A stretch of DNA of 64,000 bases from Bactericera cockerelli. Taxonomy: Eukaryota > Arthropoda > Insecta > Hemiptera > Triozidae. The stretch lies in the NCBI GenBank assembly GCA_024516035.1, contig CM044957.1:46023933-46087932 (forward strand), written 5' to 3'. The notes under the pieces are model-generated. The model had not been told where the DNA came from. It did not search any database and saw nothing but the letters and a program-made list of their open reading frames with translations. This document shows, piece by piece, positions 50,669 to 52,441 of the stretch. Position 1 is the stretch's first letter. Every line of letters begins with the position of its first letter. The translations under genes and the position numbers were made by a program.

Positions 50669-52441
50669 CCGAGTTGAAGGCGTATCTGACTTATATTTAT
50701 TTTAATCCTGTTATTAATTTGGCTCTAAATACCCAGTTAATTTTGTTCCATTTATCTTTCTTTCAATATATTCTCAAGTTGTATTTATATGTTATTATAT
50801 TATGTTGATGGTTTTTCTTGTATTTAAAAATAAAGTGTAAATAAAATAAATAGTCGGGCTTGTGTTACACGATATTTTTATGGTTGAAGTAGAAAAAATT
50901 AGGTTATTAGGACTTCTCCTAATAACATTAAGATCTATAGAAAACATTAAGATCAAGTTGCTCTGAACCAAGCTTATGAAGTCTATCTTTACCTCTAACT
51001 AATAATATTTCTCATTTTATTTCTATCCTCAGTGATCTTAGACATGGACGAAGGAACCCTCTCTTTCCTGGTGTCTGTACCTCTATCTTAACCTCTATCT
51101 TAACCTCTATCTGTACCTCTATCTTTACCTCTATCTGTACCTCTATCTTTACCTCTATCTGTACCTCTAACTAATACTATTTCTTATTTGATTTCATTCC
51201 TCAGTGATCTTAGACATGGACGAAGGAACCCTCTCTTTCGTGGTGGACGGACAATATCTGGGCGTGGCCTTCCGCGGCCTGAAAGGCAGAAAACTGTATC
51301 CTATCGTGTCGGCCGTGTGGGGCCACTGTGAAATCACAATGAAGTACATCGGCGGACTAGATCGTAAGTATTATTATTATTAAAAAAGTTATCATATTTG
51401 TGTTAGCCACTTTTGTGATATCCCAACTAATGAAACTAACTTTACTAAATATCACAATGAAATACATTGGCGGACTAGATCGTGAGTATTAATAATAATA
51501 ACAAAACTCTTAAGTGGAAGATAACCACCAAGCGAGGTTAATGCTCAAAGCATTTTCTACCACCTAACCCTCTTCATTTATTAGTATGTGGTTACAAACT
51601 CAAATTAATGAGGAAAAAATTCATGCACTGGGTGGGATTCGAACCATCGGACCCCTACGCTACCTGAATTACCAGACTAGCGCGTTAAACACTTGACTAC
51701 CAGTGCACCAGACAACAAAAAGTTACACATATTATTATTATTCAATACTTTATTGGCAAACTATATAATACATACTGCAACACAGGACATGAAATAAAAA
51801 GAACTCATTAGAATAAAGGGTTAGTGAAGAAAGGGGTGAGGTTAAAGGCTGTAGCCTTGTAAGGGTTGACTAGATGACTAGTCTGTTTACAGTTCTCGAG
51901 CGAGACACTGGTCCTCTCCCTGTTTAACGTCCCGTAGTCAGAGTTCGCAACTTTATGGAGAAAAAAATGTTGTTGTTTGGAAACCGGAGTTAGTTACAAC
52001 AATTAATAATTGTTTTAACTAACATAAATGATCAGCATAGCCATCCAGAACTCTTATGCTCTGGATGTGCTGTTTTATATTCTGTAATTTGCATAACTAT
52101 ATTAATCATTTGAATAAAAAATATTGGTCTAGCCATTCAAGAGGAAATGTTTCTTGCATCCTCGGTTCCCTTCCAGAAGGACGTTCCCTAGGAGAAGTAT
52201 TTTATATTTAAAAATAAAACATGAATTATTTTTCTAAAAGAATCCACTTGAATAGCACATATTAATCATAGTCCGCTTCTGCTCCGTTTCAGCCGAGCCC
52301 CTGCCGCTCATGGACCTCTGCCGACGCGTCATCCGACAGAAAGTCGGCAAGCAGAGGCTCGAGGAGCGTATCACCGACCTCAACCTACCTCAGGCCATGA
52401 TCACGTATCTACTGTACAGGGACCGCACGGATCTCAGATAA
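11185..52441 (+). CDS. gus: gustavus (SPSB family SPRY/SOCS-box protein), seven-part join
   Basis: Join 11185-11195, 34507-34700, 43686-43867, 46716-46901, 50313-50457, 51205-51363, 52293-52441: 1026 bases, exactly 342 codons with stop, all junctions GT-AG and in phase. The conserved protein starts at ATG 34682 (MGQKIS) and is 279 residues, about the usual length for the family. From that start, residues 8-67 are the N-terminal region, about 68-230 the SPRY domain and 231-279 the SOCS box. The ligand-pocket residues known from GUS bound to its DINNN peptide are present: R76 and P78 (HRHPVAQ), T110 (RGTHAVVG), Y128 (HSVGY) and W216-G217 (VWGH). Known role of the family: substrate receptor of a Cullin-5/Elongin BC ubiquitin ligase; in flies it binds Vasa and affects germ-plasm Vasa localisation. 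The first coding exon is inferred only from frame and splice sites. Confidence 0.93.
11249..11720 (+). repeat. About 170-base tandem repeat just after gus exon 1
   Basis: Three units sharing AAAATTGTTCTGCCC / GTGATATAATAA / CATTTATTTACCTA / ATCTATGATCTTTTTCTACC. Confidence 0.7.
12553..12668. mobile_element. Family E MITE
   Basis: Imperfect inverted ends (GGTGGCGCCGCGAGTTACG / CGTAACTCGGGTGCAGCC) around GTACGGCAATGCCTCACTG and GTAGAGTAGGGTTAGG. Confidence 0.75.
12742..13027 (-). mobile_element. SINE C interrupted by a family L MITE
   Basis: Family C tail (TATTTATTCTGCCTGATTAA) at 12742-12770 and the rest at 12903-13027, ending in a tRNA-like head (CTTTACCACAGAGCTAGCGG). Confidence 0.8.
12771..12902. 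mobile_element. Tourist-like MITE (family L), nested
   Basis: 132 bases, ends GGGCGAAATTAATAGAC and TTATTTTCGCCC, TAA duplication on both sides. The interior (TAAGCGTCGGTTTTCCCTAT, GACTTAGCGCCACAGAGG) is nearly the same as the 59635 copy. Confidence 0.88.
13662..13788 (-). mobile_element. SINE J
   Basis: GAGGCTAGGGTAGGCCCCGA, GTTTCGAACCCAG, AGGTCAAGGTGACTACC. Confidence 0.72.
14090..14360 (+). mobile_element. 5S rRNA-derived SINE (family D), full length
   Basis: The first about 110 bases resemble 5S rRNA: GCCAGCGTCGATGG, TTGAATACACCGGTTC, CACCGAAGTTAAGC, AGACTTGGATGGGTGACC. The body continues with CCCACTCAGGCTGGGTGAGG and TTCCTGCGAATGGAGGG and ends in poly(A). A perfect AAGGGCTGGTGA target duplication flanks it (14078-14089 and just after the A-run). 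The element begins exactly at the first base of the 5S-like sequence, as expected for an RNA polymerase III transcript with an internal promoter. Confidence 0.92.
14758..15001 (-). mobile_element. Non-autonomous Helitron
   Basis: On the - strand it starts TCTCTATATATGAAAC and ends GGGCAAACGGCTAG, between A and T. A hairpin (CCCGT...ACGGG) lies 11 bases before the CTAG end. The interior has no ORF of note. This matches Helitron ends but has no duplicated target, as expected. Confidence 0.8.
15504..15865 (+). mobile_element. SINE B with duplicated head and duplicated tail
   Basis: Two tRNA-like heads (15515, 15613) are followed by one body and two tail ends (TATTAACCTCGCCTGGTGG and TATTAACCTCGCCTGATGG). 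Confidence 0.8.
16110..16325 (-). mobile_element. SINE B
   Basis: Complete, ending in head sequence CTTAACCACTTGACTACCAA. Confidence 0.85.
16656..16727. mobile_element. Family E MITE, truncated
   Basis: GATGTATGGCAATGCCTCGA to TTGCCATGCCTG. Confidence 0.7.
16970..17178 (+). mobile_element. 5S-derived SINE (family D), 5'-truncated
   Basis: Begins at TCTCGTCCTATCACTAAAAT, continues GACTTGGATGGGTGACC and the full body to CGACGTTAAACCACAAAAA. Confidence 0.85.
17981..18066 (-). mobile_element. SINE A, truncated
   Basis: Tail and middle only (ATCACTTTCGTGATATCACA to CTGAAACCGGGACTC); the head is lost before a family B SINE. Confidence 0.75.
18118..18317 (+). mobile_element. SINE B
   Basis: Nearly complete, directly after a truncated SINE A. 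Confidence 0.83.
18310..18475. mobile_element. Family G repeat, left part, cut by the palindromic element
   Basis: ATATAAGAGAACTCAAGGGA to CAGGTTTCTCTTATA; its partner is at 20635. Confidence 0.65.
19143..19268 (-). repeat. Family H dispersed repeat
   Basis: CTTGGTTCTGGGGGCCCTTG to CATTCACGATGACGCCACC, present in the left arm but not the right arm of the palindrome, so it arrived later. Also at 35110-35228 (opposite strand) and partly at 30097-30150. Type unknown. Confidence 0.7.
19484..19657 (-). mobile_element. 5S-derived SINE (family D) inside the palindromic element
   Basis: Reverse complement of head and body (CTCGCTGGACGTTGCTTAAC, TTCGGTGATCC). Lies in the unpaired centre of 18476-20634. 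Confidence 0.82.
20635..20710. mobile_element. Family G repeat, right part
   Basis: TATAAAAGAGATTATTTTCC, GACCTGGGAATAGTTCTTC. Confidence 0.65.
20731..20873 (-). mobile_element. SINE A
   Basis: Complete copy, followed by (TTA)n. Confidence 0.83.
21000..22850. other. Intronic sequence, no gene seen
   Basis: Apart from the short repeats noted, AT-rich with GAAGAAAC and GGAACAGAAGATCCAAGG duplications; short ORFs lack recognisable domains. Confidence 0.5.
21370..21560 (+). repeat. Short internal repeats, shared with 23900-24110
   Basis: TTTTCTGTGATCTTCTATGC and CCAGATACCTTCTATG recur; the block TATTTTCCATCTTGCTATTG is also at about 23985. Confidence 0.65.
22855..22995 (+). mobile_element. SINE A
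   Basis: Starts TCTCAGTAGCTTGATCGATA, B-box region GGTTTGAAGTCC, ends AACACAAATTTGATAAC. Confidence 0.83.
23197..23295 (+). mobile_element. SINE B, head half
   Basis: GTAGTCGAGTGGTCAAGGTG to CATGAATTTCTCCTCGC. Confidence 0.75.
23487..23790 (+). repeat. About 27-base tandem repeat, about 11 units
   Basis: GTAGTCATCACTAGCAACTA followed by TTACATT, variable. Confidence 0.92.
24240..24345 (+). mobile_element. Possible diverged SINE A head
   Basis: ACCGACCTCAGTG, then TCAGTAGCTCGATCGAGAAG and GGTGGTTCGAGTCCC, with no recognisable tail. Confidence 0.5.
24350..25500. other. Intronic sequence, no feature seen
   Basis: Nothing repeated within the window and no coding signal beyond short open frames. 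Confidence 0.45.
25504..26090 (+). repeat. 54-base tandem repeat interrupted by SINE I
   Basis: GGATAGGGTGGCCCTCGCCA units at 25508, 25562, 25616, then after the SINE at 25977 and 26030. Confidence 0.92.
25665..25963 (+). mobile_element. SINE I with tRNA-Gly-like head and poly(A)
   Basis: GATTAGCTCAGTGGTTAAGC, CTTGCCATGCGG and GGGTTCGATCCCC resemble tRNA-Gly(GCC). The body ends AAAAAAGGCTGTGAAACACT and poly(A). AAGTATTC flanks both ends. It interrupts a 54-base minisatellite. Confidence 0.88.
26308..26390 (-). mobile_element. 5S-derived SINE (family D), body fragment
   Basis: GGTTCTACCCTCCATTTGCT and AGTCAGCCTGGGTTCC only. Confidence 0.6.
26391..27870. other. Intronic sequence, no feature seen
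   Basis: AT-rich, several homopolymer T tracts, no supported gene. Confidence 0.45.
27874..28081 (-). mobile_element. 5S-derived SINE (family D)
   Basis: From TTTAACGTCGCTTTCAACTG (end) to GTGCCATCGACGCTGGC (head). Immediately followed by a family A SINE. Confidence 0.88.
28099..28244 (+). mobile_element. SINE A
   Basis: Complete copy directly after a 5S-derived SINE. Confidence 0.85.
28632..28703 (-). mobile_element. SINE C, tail only
   Basis: TATTTATACTGCCCGATTAG and CCCATTATTCCAGCAGTAAG. Confidence 0.7.
28813..29040 (+). mobile_element. 5S-derived SINE (family D)
   Basis: Head CCAGCGTTGGAGTCGATGG with a small internal duplication, CACCGAATCTAAGCAATGTC, then body to an A-rich end. Confidence 0.87.
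29141..29357. mobile_element. Foldback MITE, about 217 bases
   Basis: Arms GATGCATTAAGTTAGCAG / CTGCTAACTTAATGCATC. About 90 bases each side pair through CGGATTTTCATGAAACC and GTACAAGTGCCGTTCCCGAG. TCTTGA occurs on both flanks, a possible duplication. Confidence 0.8.
29365..29580 (-). repeat. Low-copy repeat, inverted partner at 31705
   Basis: Shares TCGCCAGGAATTTCCTGC and GTTCTTCTTGT and a CCGTGTGG block with 31705-31905 in opposite orientation. Both can be read as SRQEFPA in translation; function unknown. Confidence 0.55.
30097..30150 (-). repeat. Family H fragment
   Basis: TGGTTCTGGGGGCCCTTGTC and a short related tail. Confidence 0.5.
31265..31560. repeat. Family Q-like repeat with triplicated end
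   Basis: TCTTAACTCTAATCTTG / CCAAAATAATTACATGAAA occurs three times (about 31385, 31445, 31500). Confidence 0.6.
31705..31905 (+). repeat. Low-copy repeat, partner of 29365
   Basis: See the 29365 entry; ends are not definable by eye. Confidence 0.55.
32110..32215 (-). mobile_element. tRNA-derived SINE head (C-like)
   Basis: TGGCTGGGATCGAACCCACG and CTTGACCACTGACTGAGC. Confidence 0.55.
32218..32412. mobile_element. Foldback MITE (family N)
   Basis: GTAGCCCATTCCAGAAACAC at left and GTGTTTCTGGAACGAGCCAC at right. Confidence 0.75.
32485..32728. repeat. (GA)n / (GT)n microsatellite
   Basis: Long GAGA tracts with GTGT and GTGAGTGA segments. Confidence 0.98.
32945..33058. mobile_element. Family L MITE, degenerate and 3'-truncated
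   Basis: Shares GACTTAGCGCCACAGAGG and flanking sequence with the other two copies but lacks the right terminal repeat. Confidence 0.75.
33985..34250 (+). repeat. Two partial copies of gus exon 2's 5' end with its acceptor
   Basis: TTTGTTGTGTCCCCAG followed by GTACAAGA occurs at 34040-34063 and 34197-34220, as well as at the real exon (34491-34514). Pieces of the exon start (GTAGTGGCGGAGG) are at about 33997. A family B SINE tail (about 34100-34175) sits between them. Confidence 0.8.
34100..34178 (+). mobile_element. SINE B tail between copies of a gus exon edge
   Basis: GGTTAGGTGGTAGAAATTGC to CTAAAGAGTGTTATTATTT. Confidence 0.75.
34507..34700 (+). CDS. gus: gus exon 2, contains the conserved MGQKIS start
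   Basis: Acceptor TGTCCCCAG ends at 34506 and donor GTGAGT starts at 34701; phase 2 in, phase 1 out. Codons up to 34681 give a Ser/Arg/His-rich extension (RYKSSSGGG...HHRTRSGRGMS). ATG 34682 starts the family-conserved MGQKIS. Both edges of this exon have extra copies nearby (34040, 34197, and 34781-34945). The first 175 bases may be 5' UTR if translation begins only at 34682. Confidence 0.8.
34743..34945 (+). repeat. Tandem partial copies of gus exon 2's 3' end with its donor
   Basis: After the real donor at 34701, units resembling GACAGAAGATATCAAGTGAG recur at about 34781-34800, 34836-34855 and 34908-34925. They are mixed with ATTGAGTAGG pieces, and the first copy also repeats GCATCACC-type sequence from inside the exon. 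Several keep a potential GTGAGT donor. Confidence 0.8.
35110..35228 (+). repeat. Family H dispersed repeat
   Basis: Reverse complement of the 19143 copy, about 119 bases, immediately before the 37-base minisatellite. Confidence 0.7.
35231..35458 (+). repeat. 37-base minisatellite (family M), about six units
   Basis: GACTGCTGGTCTACTCCCTG then TTTATAGTCCCCCAG, repeated. Confidence 0.93.
35690..36275 (+). repeat. About 88-base repeats surrounding more family M units
   Basis: TTCTTCCTCTTCCATTCTGG / AACCATTGTCTGAATTC units at 35692-35812 and 36030-36275. Between them, 35830-35995 holds four 37-base family M units. Confidence 0.88.
36328..36375 (+). mobile_element. SINE B tail fragment
   Basis: TTTAACCTCGCGCCTGGTGG and CTTCCACTATTGGGTC. 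Confidence 0.5.
36495..36558 (-). mobile_element. 5S-derived SINE (family D), short body fragment
   Basis: GGGAGTTTTACCCTCCATTC and nearby sequence. Confidence 0.55.
36594..36681. mobile_element. Family E MITE, left end lost
   Basis: GATGTACGGCAATGCCTCAT to GTCGTAACTCGGGTGCAGCC. Confidence 0.75.
36691..36825 (+). mobile_element. SINE A, first bases lost
   Basis: Begins at CATTAATCGATTAGGCGGCG; rest intact. Follows a family E MITE. Confidence 0.8.
37087..37214 (-). mobile_element. SINE A, internal deletion
   Basis: The tail block runs ATATCACTCGCTTCAC, lacking about 14 bases of other copies. Confidence 0.8.
37490..37622 (-). mobile_element. SINE B, deletion in head
   Basis: Body and a shortened head (GGTGGGATGCGTTAACCACT). 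Confidence 0.7.
37758..37842 (-). mobile_element. SINE B, head only
   Basis: GCGGTGGAATTCGAATCAAC to TTGACTACCAATGCA. Confidence 0.7.
37965..38300 (+). repeat. Variable tandem repeat of about 70-120 bases, four units
   Basis: GAACAAATTTCGGCTTCACT, TTAACCTCG and GGTTCCCAAACTA recur. Confidence 0.85.
38399..38485 (+). mobile_element. SINE A, degenerate 3' part
   Basis: ATCGATGGTTCGAGTTGTGA to AACACAAATTTGATAAC. Confidence 0.6.
38908..38992 (+). mobile_element. LINE 3' tail (family F-like)
   Basis: GGTTTGATGGCAGAGATTGC, AATAAGCACGCCCTTTGTC. Confidence 0.7.
39162..39305 (-). mobile_element. SINE A
   Basis: Complete copy. Confidence 0.85.
39541..39742 (-). mobile_element. LINE 3' tail (family F variant)
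   Basis: Same variant as 49682. Confidence 0.8.
40196..40280 (+). mobile_element. SINE J head
   Basis: TAGTCACCGTGGCAGAGTGA, GGTCCGATTCCCAGC. Confidence 0.75.
40281..41446. other. Intronic AT-rich sequence with a diverged direct repeat
   Basis: ACTACACCATCCATG...GCATTAACTTTACTACC (about 40325) is echoed at about 40555, either side of a SINE I tail. Confidence 0.45.
40484..40548 (+). mobile_element. SINE I, 3' end with poly(A)
   Basis: GATTCATGGCTACGAAATAA, AAGGCTGTGAAACACTC and a 20-A run. Confidence 0.75.
41447..41654. mobile_element. Family G repeats, two copies
   Basis: AAGATATAAGAGAACTGGG, AATATAAGAGAACCATTTCC, GGAGTTCTCTTATATAAGG. Confidence 0.65.
41655..41822 (+). mobile_element. 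LINE 3' tail (family F variant)
   Basis: GGGTTGGGTGGAAGACATTG to CTAATAAAGCATAATAATA. Confidence 0.82.
42619..42785. mobile_element. Foldback MITE (family N)
   Basis: About 60-base inverted ends: GTAGCCCGTTCCATAGACAC and AGAGTCTCTGGAACGGGCTAC, with TTTCAACTGTCACAC / GTGTGACAGTTGAAAC inside. Confidence 0.8.
42818..42895. mobile_element. Family G fragment
   Basis: CTATAAGAGAAAGTAGTCGC, TATACGAGAAATAGTTTC. Confidence 0.5.
42941..43432 (+). repeat. 43-base minisatellite, about eleven units
   Basis: GGCGCCAATCCGCCCAGCAC then TCTGTTTTATATTTATGTC. Open reading frames run through it in three frames only because the unit lacks stops. Confidence 0.95.
43500..43670 (+). repeat. 58-base repeat, three units, abutting gus exon 3 acceptor
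   Basis: TTTTTGGCGCCAATCCGCCG, ATGCTAATCCTAATTCTCGC then AG. Related to the 43-base array upstream. Confidence 0.93.
43686..43867 (+). CDS. gus: gus exon 3 (pre-SPRY region)
   Basis: It encodes N/GVKTVNREN through FKPAIPREL, LDIILDMPPAS and the end of the region at SLNIFVK, the hallmark stretch before the SPRY domain in GUS/SPSB proteins. Acceptor CGCAG ends at 43685; donor GTAAGT starts at 43868. A second in-frame acceptor (TTCTCGCAG ending 43670) would add five residues. The family start MGQKIS-x-GVKTV favours 43686. GC-rich codons contrast with the AT-rich surroundings. Confidence 0.92.
43872..44060 (-). mobile_element. LINE 3' tail (family F) abutting gus exon 3 donor
   Basis: Family F, sense: GGGTTGGGTGGAAGAGATTG, CCCCGCCCTTTAGTTAGGAC, AT-rich stretch, AATAAAGTGTAAATAAATAA. 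This is the 3' end of a non-LTR retrotransposon, repeatedly 5'-truncated. Here its reversed (TTTA)n tail starts at intron position 5-6. Confidence 0.82.
44401..44604 (-). mobile_element. SINE C (tRNA-derived)
   Basis: Sense: TCCCGGTAGC...GGTTCGAAACCCAGCCGGGA, then CATTTGGGATTTTTACCACA, AATAATACGTCTTGGGC and GGGCAGTATAAATA with (TAA)n. Complete. Confidence 0.85.
44898..45229 (+). repeat. CTATC / AACTAACTCAT minisatellite, left part
   Basis: About 15 variable units of roughly 20 bases (CATCTATCTATCTATCAACTAA type), interrupted by the hAT element. Confidence 0.9.
45230..46406. mobile_element. hAT-type DNA transposon, non-autonomous (1.18 kb)
   Basis: Terminal inverted repeats CAGTGCCGGATTA / TAATCCGGCACTG and a perfect 8-base duplication TATATCTA (45222-45229, 46407-46414). 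TIR sequence and 8-base duplication are those of hAT elements. Its left about 80 bases recur internally at about 45543-45630. No transposase-like ORF; the longest stretch (45980-46168) has no recognisable domain. It sits inside the CTATCTATCAACTAACTCAT array in gus intron 3. Confidence 0.9.
46407..46482 (+). repeat. CTATC / AACTAACTCAT minisatellite, middle part
   Basis: Continuation of the array to the right of the hAT element, before the LINE tail. Confidence 0.85.
46483..46671 (-). mobile_element. LINE 3' tail (family F)
   Basis: Uninterrupted copy; shows the empty site of the Helitron at 62300. Lies just upstream of a gus exon. Confidence 0.85.
46672..46698 (+). repeat. CTATC / AACTAACTCAC array, last unit before a gus acceptor
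   Basis: A final unit follows the LINE tail and ends about 17 bases before the acceptor of the exon at 46716. Confidence 0.7.
46716..46901 (+). CDS. gus: gus exon 4 (SPRY domain, first part)
   Basis: 62 codons, phase 0 on both sides, from DDDKLTFHRHPVAQ to DAPLHSVGYQ. It holds the pocket residues R, P, T and Y named in the gene entry. The acceptor (CTCCTCCCCGCAG) ends at 46715; donor GTAAGC starts at 46902. The intron just upstream is a LINE tail followed by a CTATCTATCAACTAACTCA-type array reaching to within about 20 bases of the acceptor. Confidence 0.95.
47339..47473 (+). mobile_element. SINE A
   Basis: Nearly complete, in gus intron 4; tail CACGACAATGATATGATAAC is shortened. Confidence 0.82.
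48012..48110 (-). mobile_element. SINE C, head half
   Basis: GATAACTTGTCATGTCCCGG to TTTACCACTGAGCTACCGAG. Confidence 0.8.
48578..48785 (+). mobile_element. SINE C
   Basis: Complete, ending (TTA)n. Confidence 0.87.
49027..49520 (+). mobile_element. SINE I split by a LINE tail
   Basis: Head to GTGCGCTCGTGTT at 49186; body resumes at about 49367 (CGTGTTCACCCAGTACG) and ends AAAAGGCAGTGAAAAAC. CGTGTT is duplicated around the insert. Confidence 0.8.
49188..49362 (-). mobile_element. LINE 3' tail (family F) inside SINE I
   Basis: Close to the 46483 copy, with CGTGTT duplicated at the target. Confidence 0.85.
49562..49933. mobile_element. Foldback MITE (family N) split by a LINE tail
   Basis: Left arm at 49562-49640, right arm at about 49870-49933 (GAGTGTTTCTGGAACGGGCT); family F insert between. 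Confidence 0.78.
49682..49862 (-). mobile_element. LINE 3' tail (family F variant) inside a MITE
   Basis: TATGCTTTATTAGGTAAGAC variant; interrupts a family N element. Confidence 0.83.
50313..50457 (+). CDS. gus: gus exon 5 (SPRY domain, middle)
   Basis: Encodes SLVGSNDQSWGWDLGRN, LYHN and YPTLLKPDE to VPDKFL, matching the GUS/SPSB core. Acceptor TTTGATTTCAG ends at 50312 (phase 0); donor GTGAGA starts at 50458 (phase 1). Confidence 0.95.
50965..51180 (+). repeat. Minisatellite with a partial copy of gus exon 6 and its acceptor
   Basis: An ACCTCTATCTGT/TTT array (51078-51175) follows a segment at 50970-51075. That segment matches the region around the true acceptor 172 bases further on (TCCTCAG, then TGATCTTAGACATGGACG). 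Confidence 0.85.
51205..51363 (+). CDS. gus: gus exon 6 (SPRY domain, C-terminal part)
   Basis: Encodes VILDMDEGTLSFVVDGQ, LGVAFRGLKG, LYPIVSAVWGHCE and YIGGLD. Acceptor ATTCCTCAG ends at 51204; donor GTAAGT starts at 51364. Partial copies of its first about 40 bases plus acceptor lie 172 bases upstream, and a copy of its last about 35 bases plus donor lies 122 bases downstream. Confidence 0.95.
51384..51495 (-). repeat. Truncated SINE A followed by a partial copy of exon 6's end
   Basis: 51384-51449 is the tail part of a family A SINE (- strand). 51450-51495 repeats the last bases of gus exon 6 (ATCACAATGAAATACATTGG) and its donor GTGAGTATTA, with synonymous-looking changes. Confidence 0.8.
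51504..51709 (-). mobile_element. SINE B in gus intron 6
   Basis: Complete copy just after the duplicated exon edge. Confidence 0.85.
52293..52441 (+). CDS. gus: gus terminal coding exon (SOCS box)
   Basis: Encodes PEPLPLMDLCRRVIRQKVG to TYLLYRDRTDLR and stop TAA at 52439-52441. The LCRRVIR segment fits the Elongin-BC box and the LNLPQ segment sits where the Cullin-5 box is expected. Acceptor CCGTTTCAG ends at 52292. Confidence 0.95.

What the first reader, a model, noticed from the sequence alone, without database searches (positions are those of the whole stretch)
50965..51495. gus exon 6 is bracketed by copies of its own two ends, splice sites included
The acceptor and first about 40 coding bases (TCCTCAG then TGATCTTAGACATGGACG) occur 172 bases upstream of the real site. 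The last about 35 coding bases and the donor (GGCGGACTAGATCGTGAGTA) occur again downstream, after a truncated SINE A. Differences are few and partly synonymous, suggesting a duplicated, then decayed, whole exon or repeated local duplication. The decoys could cause mis-splicing.
Basis: seen in the sequence. Interest (0 to 1): 0.75.

Follow-up and report, generated by a model that had tools for sequence, protein, structure and literature searches.

The report
Exon ends copied into flanking introns
One exon of an insect gene has stray copies of both its ends, splice signals included, lying beside it; they look like the scars of a SINE jump and of a small local DNA stutter, and a public transcript shows the gene can still be spliced correctly.

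Summary
Upstream, 50982-51073 repeats 51154-51245 (92 bp, 92%), with acceptor and 41 coding bases; units of a 12-bp minisatellite lie between. Downstream, 51333-51387 repeats at 51451-51505 (55 bp, 87%), with 31 coding bases and the donor; the 63 bp between are all a 5'-truncated SINE A whose ends meet the repeats within 2 bases: the geometry of a SINE insertion with an unusually long target-site duplication (51-55 bp; four clear SINE A cases here 12-17). The exon's middle has no second copy. So: two small separate duplications. Six window exons translate exactly to the 288-aa protein of a public 1,073-bp contig, so the true exon 6 sites are used there; both decoys look usable and lead to early stops. 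The gene is gus of a psyllid-like insect. The pattern recurs: gus exon 2 is also bracketed and two other donors are duplicated (6 of 19 junctions, against 9-13% of random positions; 4 of 17 without exon 6, not significant). Of 37 SINE copies the three with strong long flank repeats all sit at exon junctions: the lead worth a genome-wide test.

The parts
50313..50457 (+). gus exon 5
   Evidence: part of the six-exon set that translates exactly to P0001
50982..51073 (+). left copy: CTAAC, pyrimidine tract, acceptor (first exon-like base 51033) and 41 coding bases
   Evidence: 92% to 51154-51245
51074..51169 (+). 12-bp minisatellite, 8 copies; 51074-51153 lies between the two left copies
   Evidence: Tandem Repeats Finder
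51154..51245 (+). the original counterpart of the left copy, running into true exon 6
51205..51363 (+). gus exon 6, 159 bp, true acceptor and donor
   Evidence: exact translation to P0001
51333..51387 (+). exon 6 end, true donor and intron start: first copy of the right repeat
   Evidence: 87% to 51451-51505
51386..51450 (-). 5'-truncated SINE A, consensus positions 78-142 of 142
51451..51505 (+). second copy of the right repeat: 31 coding bases and donor GTGAGT (last exon-like base 51481)
51493..51716 (-). a second SINE (family C here); its A/T-rich tail overlaps the end of the right copy
52293..52440 (+). gus exon 7 (last coding exon)

Best explanation
Two small, separate local duplications, neither of them a whole-exon copy. 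Right side: a 5'-truncated SINE A was inserted at the exon 6/intron boundary by target-primed reverse transcription, with the two strands nicked about 40-55 bp apart, one nick in the intron and one 31 bases inside the exon. Filling in that stagger made a target-site duplication that holds the exon end and the donor, so the exon upstream of the SINE stayed complete and the insertion became intron sequence. Left side: about 92 bp spanning the acceptor and exon start were duplicated in tandem, with a 12-bp unit expanding at (or filling) the join. Shown: the repeats, their fit to the SINE ends, the missing exon middle, correct splicing in one contig. Inferred: order of events, nicking, and that the decoys are normally ignored.
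For: The 63 bases between the right copies are all SINE A; the repeat lies 0 bases from its 5' end and 2 from its 3' end, score 36 against a maximum of 10.0 in 300 random flank pairs, and the 3' end is kept while the 5' end is cut, as in reverse transcription of an RNA. Four other SINE A copies show the usual short duplications, 12-17 bp, in the same position. The exon middle is unique. The left gap is 12-bp units that also begin each left copy. Local direct repeats are common here: 24 clusters, 9.2% of bases.
Against: The right repeat is three to four times longer than the clear SINE A cases here, and above 20 bp is rare elsewhere (1 of 25 insertions in wild-type cells, and that one was 1,228 bp; PMC2666801, passages). 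The last 15 bases of the right repeat are A/T-rich and next to a SINE tail, so their match may be chance. No empty site, no second genome and no reads were seen. For the left side no mobile element or break signature was found, and why only one side of it has the expanded 12-bp array is not settled.
Confidence: 0.7

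Rival explanations
1. Duplication first: both sides come from repair of staggered breaks (tandem duplication, with or without filler), and the SINE fragment is filler or a later insertion at the join.
For: Other gapped pairs in the window have no SINE between their copies: of 9 pairs examined, 7 had none of SINE A, B or C in the gap. Small tandem duplications from break repair are a known class (PMC8355091, abstract and passages).
Against: The right gap is SINE A with no base left over, 3' end kept; a later insertion would have to hit the exact join.
Confidence: 0.15
2. A whole extra exon 6 on one or both sides, now decayed.
For: Copies of both ends exist and one can imagine the middle lost.
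Against: No trace of 51246-51332 elsewhere in the window; sharp ends at 87-92% identity; the missing parts are replaced by a SINE and a minisatellite.
Confidence: 0.04
3. Assembly or haplotype artefact.
For: The tract has repeats, and psyllid drafts are reported as hard to collapse (PMC13003732, passages).
Against: Copies differ by 8-13%, against 1.37% heterozygosity reported there (by context for C. picta); a SINE sits exactly at one join.
Confidence: 0.06
4. The copies are kept as working alternative splice sites that make shortened GUS or switch the message off.
For: In a crude matrix from 9 donors and 8 acceptors of this window the donor copy scores 3.5 against 3.8 and the acceptor copy 8.6 against 3.8. 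Predicted products end at ...VILDMDEGTLSFLVSVPLS* and ...IGGLDRKYYYY*.
Against: Among the 120 best hits listed of 1,296 and of 1,012 the only 100%-identical protein is P0001, which has the ordinary sequence at both places. Copies of exon ends need no function to exist.
Confidence: 0.05

Closest known systems
Long target-site duplication of a 5'-truncated non-LTR element (target-primed reverse transcription)
   Same: Element between direct repeats, 3' end kept, 5' end cut; duplications above 20 bp documented for ZfL2-2 (PMC2666801, passages)
   Different: Length here is 40-55 bp and the duplicated target holds an exon end and its donor
Small tandem duplication from repair of staggered breaks
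   Same: Direct repeat below 100 bp in place (PMC8355091, abstract and passages)
   Different: The left copies are separated by an expanded 12-bp array; no break was observed
Intron gain by tandem duplication of splice signals
   Same: A duplicated segment carries splice sites (PMC4974935 and PMC2891723, passages)
   Different: No new intron arises; existing introns only grow and receive decoys
Introners and other elements that borrow a splice site from their target-site duplication
   Same: Element plus duplicated target leaves the message unchanged (PMC9860276, passages)
   Different: Those described there have 3-9 bp duplications and make new introns; this is a SINE at an existing boundary
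Canine merle SINE at the PMEL17 intron 10/exon 11 boundary
   Same: A SINE lies at an intron-exon boundary (PMC7349775, start of abstract in listing)
   Different: There the tail length alters the phenotype; I did not read how its duplicated target relates to the splice site

Membership tests
SINE insertion with target-site duplication (right copy) | A mobile element fills the space between the repeats | tested here: met
   63 of 63 bases are SINE A
SINE insertion with target-site duplication (right copy) | Repeats meet both ends of the element | tested here: met
   0 and 2 bases away, score 36, random maximum 10.0
SINE insertion with target-site duplication (right copy) | 3' end kept, truncation at the 5' end | tested here: met
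   consensus positions 78-142 of 142
SINE insertion with target-site duplication (right copy) | Duplication of usual length | tested here: not met
   51-55 bp (at least about 40) against 12-17 bp in four clear SINE A cases; length is not a strict requirement, longer ones are documented
SINE insertion with target-site duplication (right copy) | Empty site with a single copy in a relative | not testable with these tools
   no second psyllid DNA; the genome search did not complete
Tandem duplication (left copy) | Head-to-tail copies of one stretch | tested here: met
   92 bp, 92%, same strand, spacing 172
Tandem duplication (left copy) | Copies adjoin | tested here: inconclusive
   80 bp of 12-bp units between them, a unit that also begins each copy
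Duplicated or mutually exclusive exon | Second copy with the whole exon or its remains | tested here: not met
   exon middle unique in the window
Intron gain by tandem duplication / introner | A new intron in the coding sequence | tested here: not met
   both copies lie inside existing introns; the spliced product is the ordinary gus protein

The most novel reading that the evidence does not exclude
In this psyllid lineage exon-intron boundaries are repeatedly duplicated into the neighbouring introns, and SINEs that strike a boundary survive when an unusually long target-site duplication remakes the exon end and splice site, leaving exons bracketed by working-looking decoys.
Probability: 0.15. 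Interest if true: 0.6.

Novelty: new member of a known kind. Interest (0 to 1): 0.33.

Why it matters
It is a compact natural example of an insertion that reached into a coding exon and was made harmless because the duplicated target carries the donor. The window shows similar copies at other exon ends, so whether boundaries are hot spots, or only places where survivors are filtered, can be asked directly of a psyllid genome.

Tried and rejected
Whole-exon copy: rejected, the exon middle is unique in the window. One event for both sides: no shared filler or breakpoint, so two events are preferred (inference). Excess of duplications at junctions: 6 of 19 junctions lie in local repeats against 9.5-12.8% of 4,000 random positions (P 0.0066-0.027 by cut-off); without the two exon 6 junctions that prompted the work 4 of 17, P 0.07-0.17. 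An earlier count with another criterion and 15 junctions (gus exon 2 and two further donors not in it) gave 4 of 15, P 0.043, and 2 of 13, P 0.34, without exon 6. I therefore do not claim an excess. Slower decay of the exon half of the left copy: 1 of 41 against 6 of 51, Fisher P 0.13, not significant. The splice-site matrix had misplaced training rows and was replaced; that one is crude too, since nine other GT sites between exons 5 and 7 outscore the true exon 6 donor. One search used a wrong reading frame and found nothing. One search stopped on an error and was redone. Zhuo et al. 2007 on introns from tandem arrays was seen only as a reference entry; the text is not held. A word search for duplicated splice sites found no paper.

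Full report
What is there. The left pair is 50982-51073 and 51154-51245 (92 bp, spacing 172, 92% identical), the right pair 51333-51387 and 51451-51505 (55 bp, spacing 118, 87%). Within the window their BLAST E-values are 4e-34 and 2.9e-14. The left pair carries CTAAC (branch-point-like, by recall), a pyrimidine tract, the acceptor and 41 coding bases; the right pair 31 coding bases, the donor (GTAAGT true, GTGAGT copy) and some intron. Differences by part: left 6 in 51 intron and 1 in 41 coding bases (GTG/CTG, not synonymous); right 2 in 31 coding bases (both synonymous), 1 in the first 9 intron bases, 4 in the last 15.

The gene. Exons 5-7 encode part of a SPRY domain and a SOCS box; the best PDB match is 2fnj, Drosophila CG2944-PF, which I recall as GUSTAVUS. 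A protein search put a 288-aa protein of a 1,073-bp contig (P0001, source mark lgn, which I take by recall for an assembly of public sequencing runs) at 100% over the whole 271-aa query, and protein gustavus of Cacopsylla melanoneura next at 96%, so the window is probably from a psyllid near Cacopsylla (taxonomy). Six window exons, 42084-42129, 43686-43867, 46716-46901, 50313-50457, 51205-51363 and 52293-52440, translate to P0001 exactly. These exons span 10 kb, so a 1,073-bp contig must come from a spliced message (inference), and the true exon 6 sites are used in it. N-terminal parts of the C. melanoneura protein fit a window exon ending at 11195 and one at 34507-34700 (my reading).

The right copy. 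In the exon 6 copy only consensus positions 78-142 of 142 remain, the 3' end being kept. All 63 bases between the two right copies belong to it. The flanking repeat lies 0 bases from one end of the element and 2 from the other, with a score of 36; 300 random pairs of window stretches gave at most 10.0. Four other SINE A copies have clear short duplications in the same position (12, 15, 16 and 17 bp, scores 12-15); two more show weaker ones (11 and 15 bp, scores 8.5 and 10.0), and the rest none above chance. This is what a SINE insertion with target-site duplication looks like, only longer. Part of the 55 bp is an A/T-rich end next to the tail of a second SINE (51493-51716), so the certain length is nearer 40 bp. 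Duplications above 20 bp are rare but documented: 1 of 25 ZfL2-2 insertions in wild-type DT40 cells, that one of 1,228 bp (PMC2666801, passages).

The left copy. None of SINE A, B or C lies between the copies. The 80 bp between them are units of a 12-bp minisatellite (51074-51169, 8 copies) whose unit also begins each copy. A tandem duplication with growth of this unit at the join is the simplest reading. Small tandem duplications from break repair are a known class (PMC8355091, abstract and passages). Local direct repeats are common in this window: 24 clusters (some are pairs of neighbouring SINEs), 9.2% of bases.

Not a decayed exon. The exon middle, 51246-51332, has no second copy in the window: its only other matches are 11-15 bases with E of 2 or more. 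Both copies end sharply while still 87-92% identical.

Consequences. Use of the left acceptor would give ...VILDMDEGTLSFLVSVPLS and a stop; use of the right donor would end the protein at ...IGGLDRKYYYY, before the SOCS box. With a small matrix from 9 donors and 8 acceptors of this window (exon 6 left out), the donor copy scores 3.5 against 3.8 for the true one and the acceptor copy 8.6 against 3.8; among sites between exons 5 and 7 the two donors rank 10 and 13 of 95 and the acceptor copy and true acceptor 2 and 5 of 91. So the copies look about as usable as the true sites, by a crude measure. Among the 120 best hits listed of 1,296 (donor version) and of 1,012 (acceptor version), the only 100%-identical protein was P0001, which has the ordinary sequence at both places. 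One contig cannot exclude rare mis-splicing, and such products might be degraded.

Not alone. Similar copies occur at other exon ends here. Gus exon 2 (34507-34700) has acceptor copies with first exon-like bases at 34056 and 34213; between these two lies a SINE C remnant (34106-34183 by BLAST, and a head-like 19-mer at 34073-34091 with two mismatches). Behind exon 2 lies a family of seven 41-bp members, the true end included, at 61-100% identity; three of the other six keep a donor like the true one (34795, 34852, 34916). An exon-like stretch ending at 25546 has its end and donor five times, with a SINE B inside the array. A donor at 63482 on the minus strand, in a gene that I recall as resembling LIPT1 (no Pfam match), is copied 94 bases on. 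Counting the 19 junctions that I could place, 6 lie in such repeats against 9.5-12.8% of random positions; without exon 6 it is 4 of 17, P 0.07-0.17. The junction list is mine, incomplete and partly unsupported by any transcript. Of 37 merged SINE copies, fragments included, three have flank repeats with scores of 53, 36 and 25.5 (62, 51 and 28 aligned bases); the next best is 15.0, and two other long alignments (31 bases) score only 10.5 and 8.5, near chance. All three strong ones sit at exon junctions. Two cautions: SINE B at 25665 may simply have landed in an existing array, and the SINE C at exon 2 does not meet its repeats by BLAST (42 and 9 bases away), because its head is broken. With 19 junctions in 64 kb a 55-bp flank should hold one about 1.6% of the time (my arithmetic), so this is the lead worth following. 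Survival of only those insertions that remake the splice site would filter them but not make more of them.

Limits. No reads, no second psyllid genome and no genome-wide search were available: the genome search did not answer in eleven tries. An artefact is unlikely because the copies differ by 8-13%, against 1.37% heterozygosity reported, by context, for C. picta (PMC13003732, passages).

Literature. Tandem duplications that carry splice signals are known from work on intron gain (PMC4974935 and PMC2891723, passages), and elements that take a splice site from their target-site duplication from introners (PMC9860276, passages). A SINE at an intron-exon boundary is known from the canine merle allele (PMC7349775, start of abstract in a listing). 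In the listings (one search found nothing) I saw no title or abstract start that describes a SINE whose long duplication remakes a donor; this is a word search of one library, not proof of absence.

Noticed in passing
window 33992-34995: gus exon 2 is bracketed too: two upstream copies of its acceptor and exon start (a SINE C remnant between them) and a tandem family of its end and donor downstream.
   Followed up: yes
window 25507-26082: An exon-like end with donor occurs five times in a 54-bp array that also holds a SINE B; the exon's gene was not identified.
   Followed up: partly
window 63354-63493: A minus-strand donor (gene resembling LIPT1, by recall) is copied 94 bases downstream, with 45 bp of unexplained sequence between.
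   Followed up: partly
window 43497-43671: A 58-bp unit in about three copies, each with CTAAT and a CAG, runs up to the gus exon 3 acceptor.
   Followed up: no
window 22226-22379: A 57-bp pair (91%) with an acceptor-like TTTCAG, 40 bp apart; no gene evidence.
   Followed up: no
window 60332-62188: Uninterrupted 619-aa minus-strand reading frame with a reverse-transcriptase domain (Pfam RVT_1), a candidate LINE.
   Followed up: no
window 14090-14211: One 5S rRNA match above Rfam's threshold (65 bits), within the span of the gus gene.
   Followed up: no
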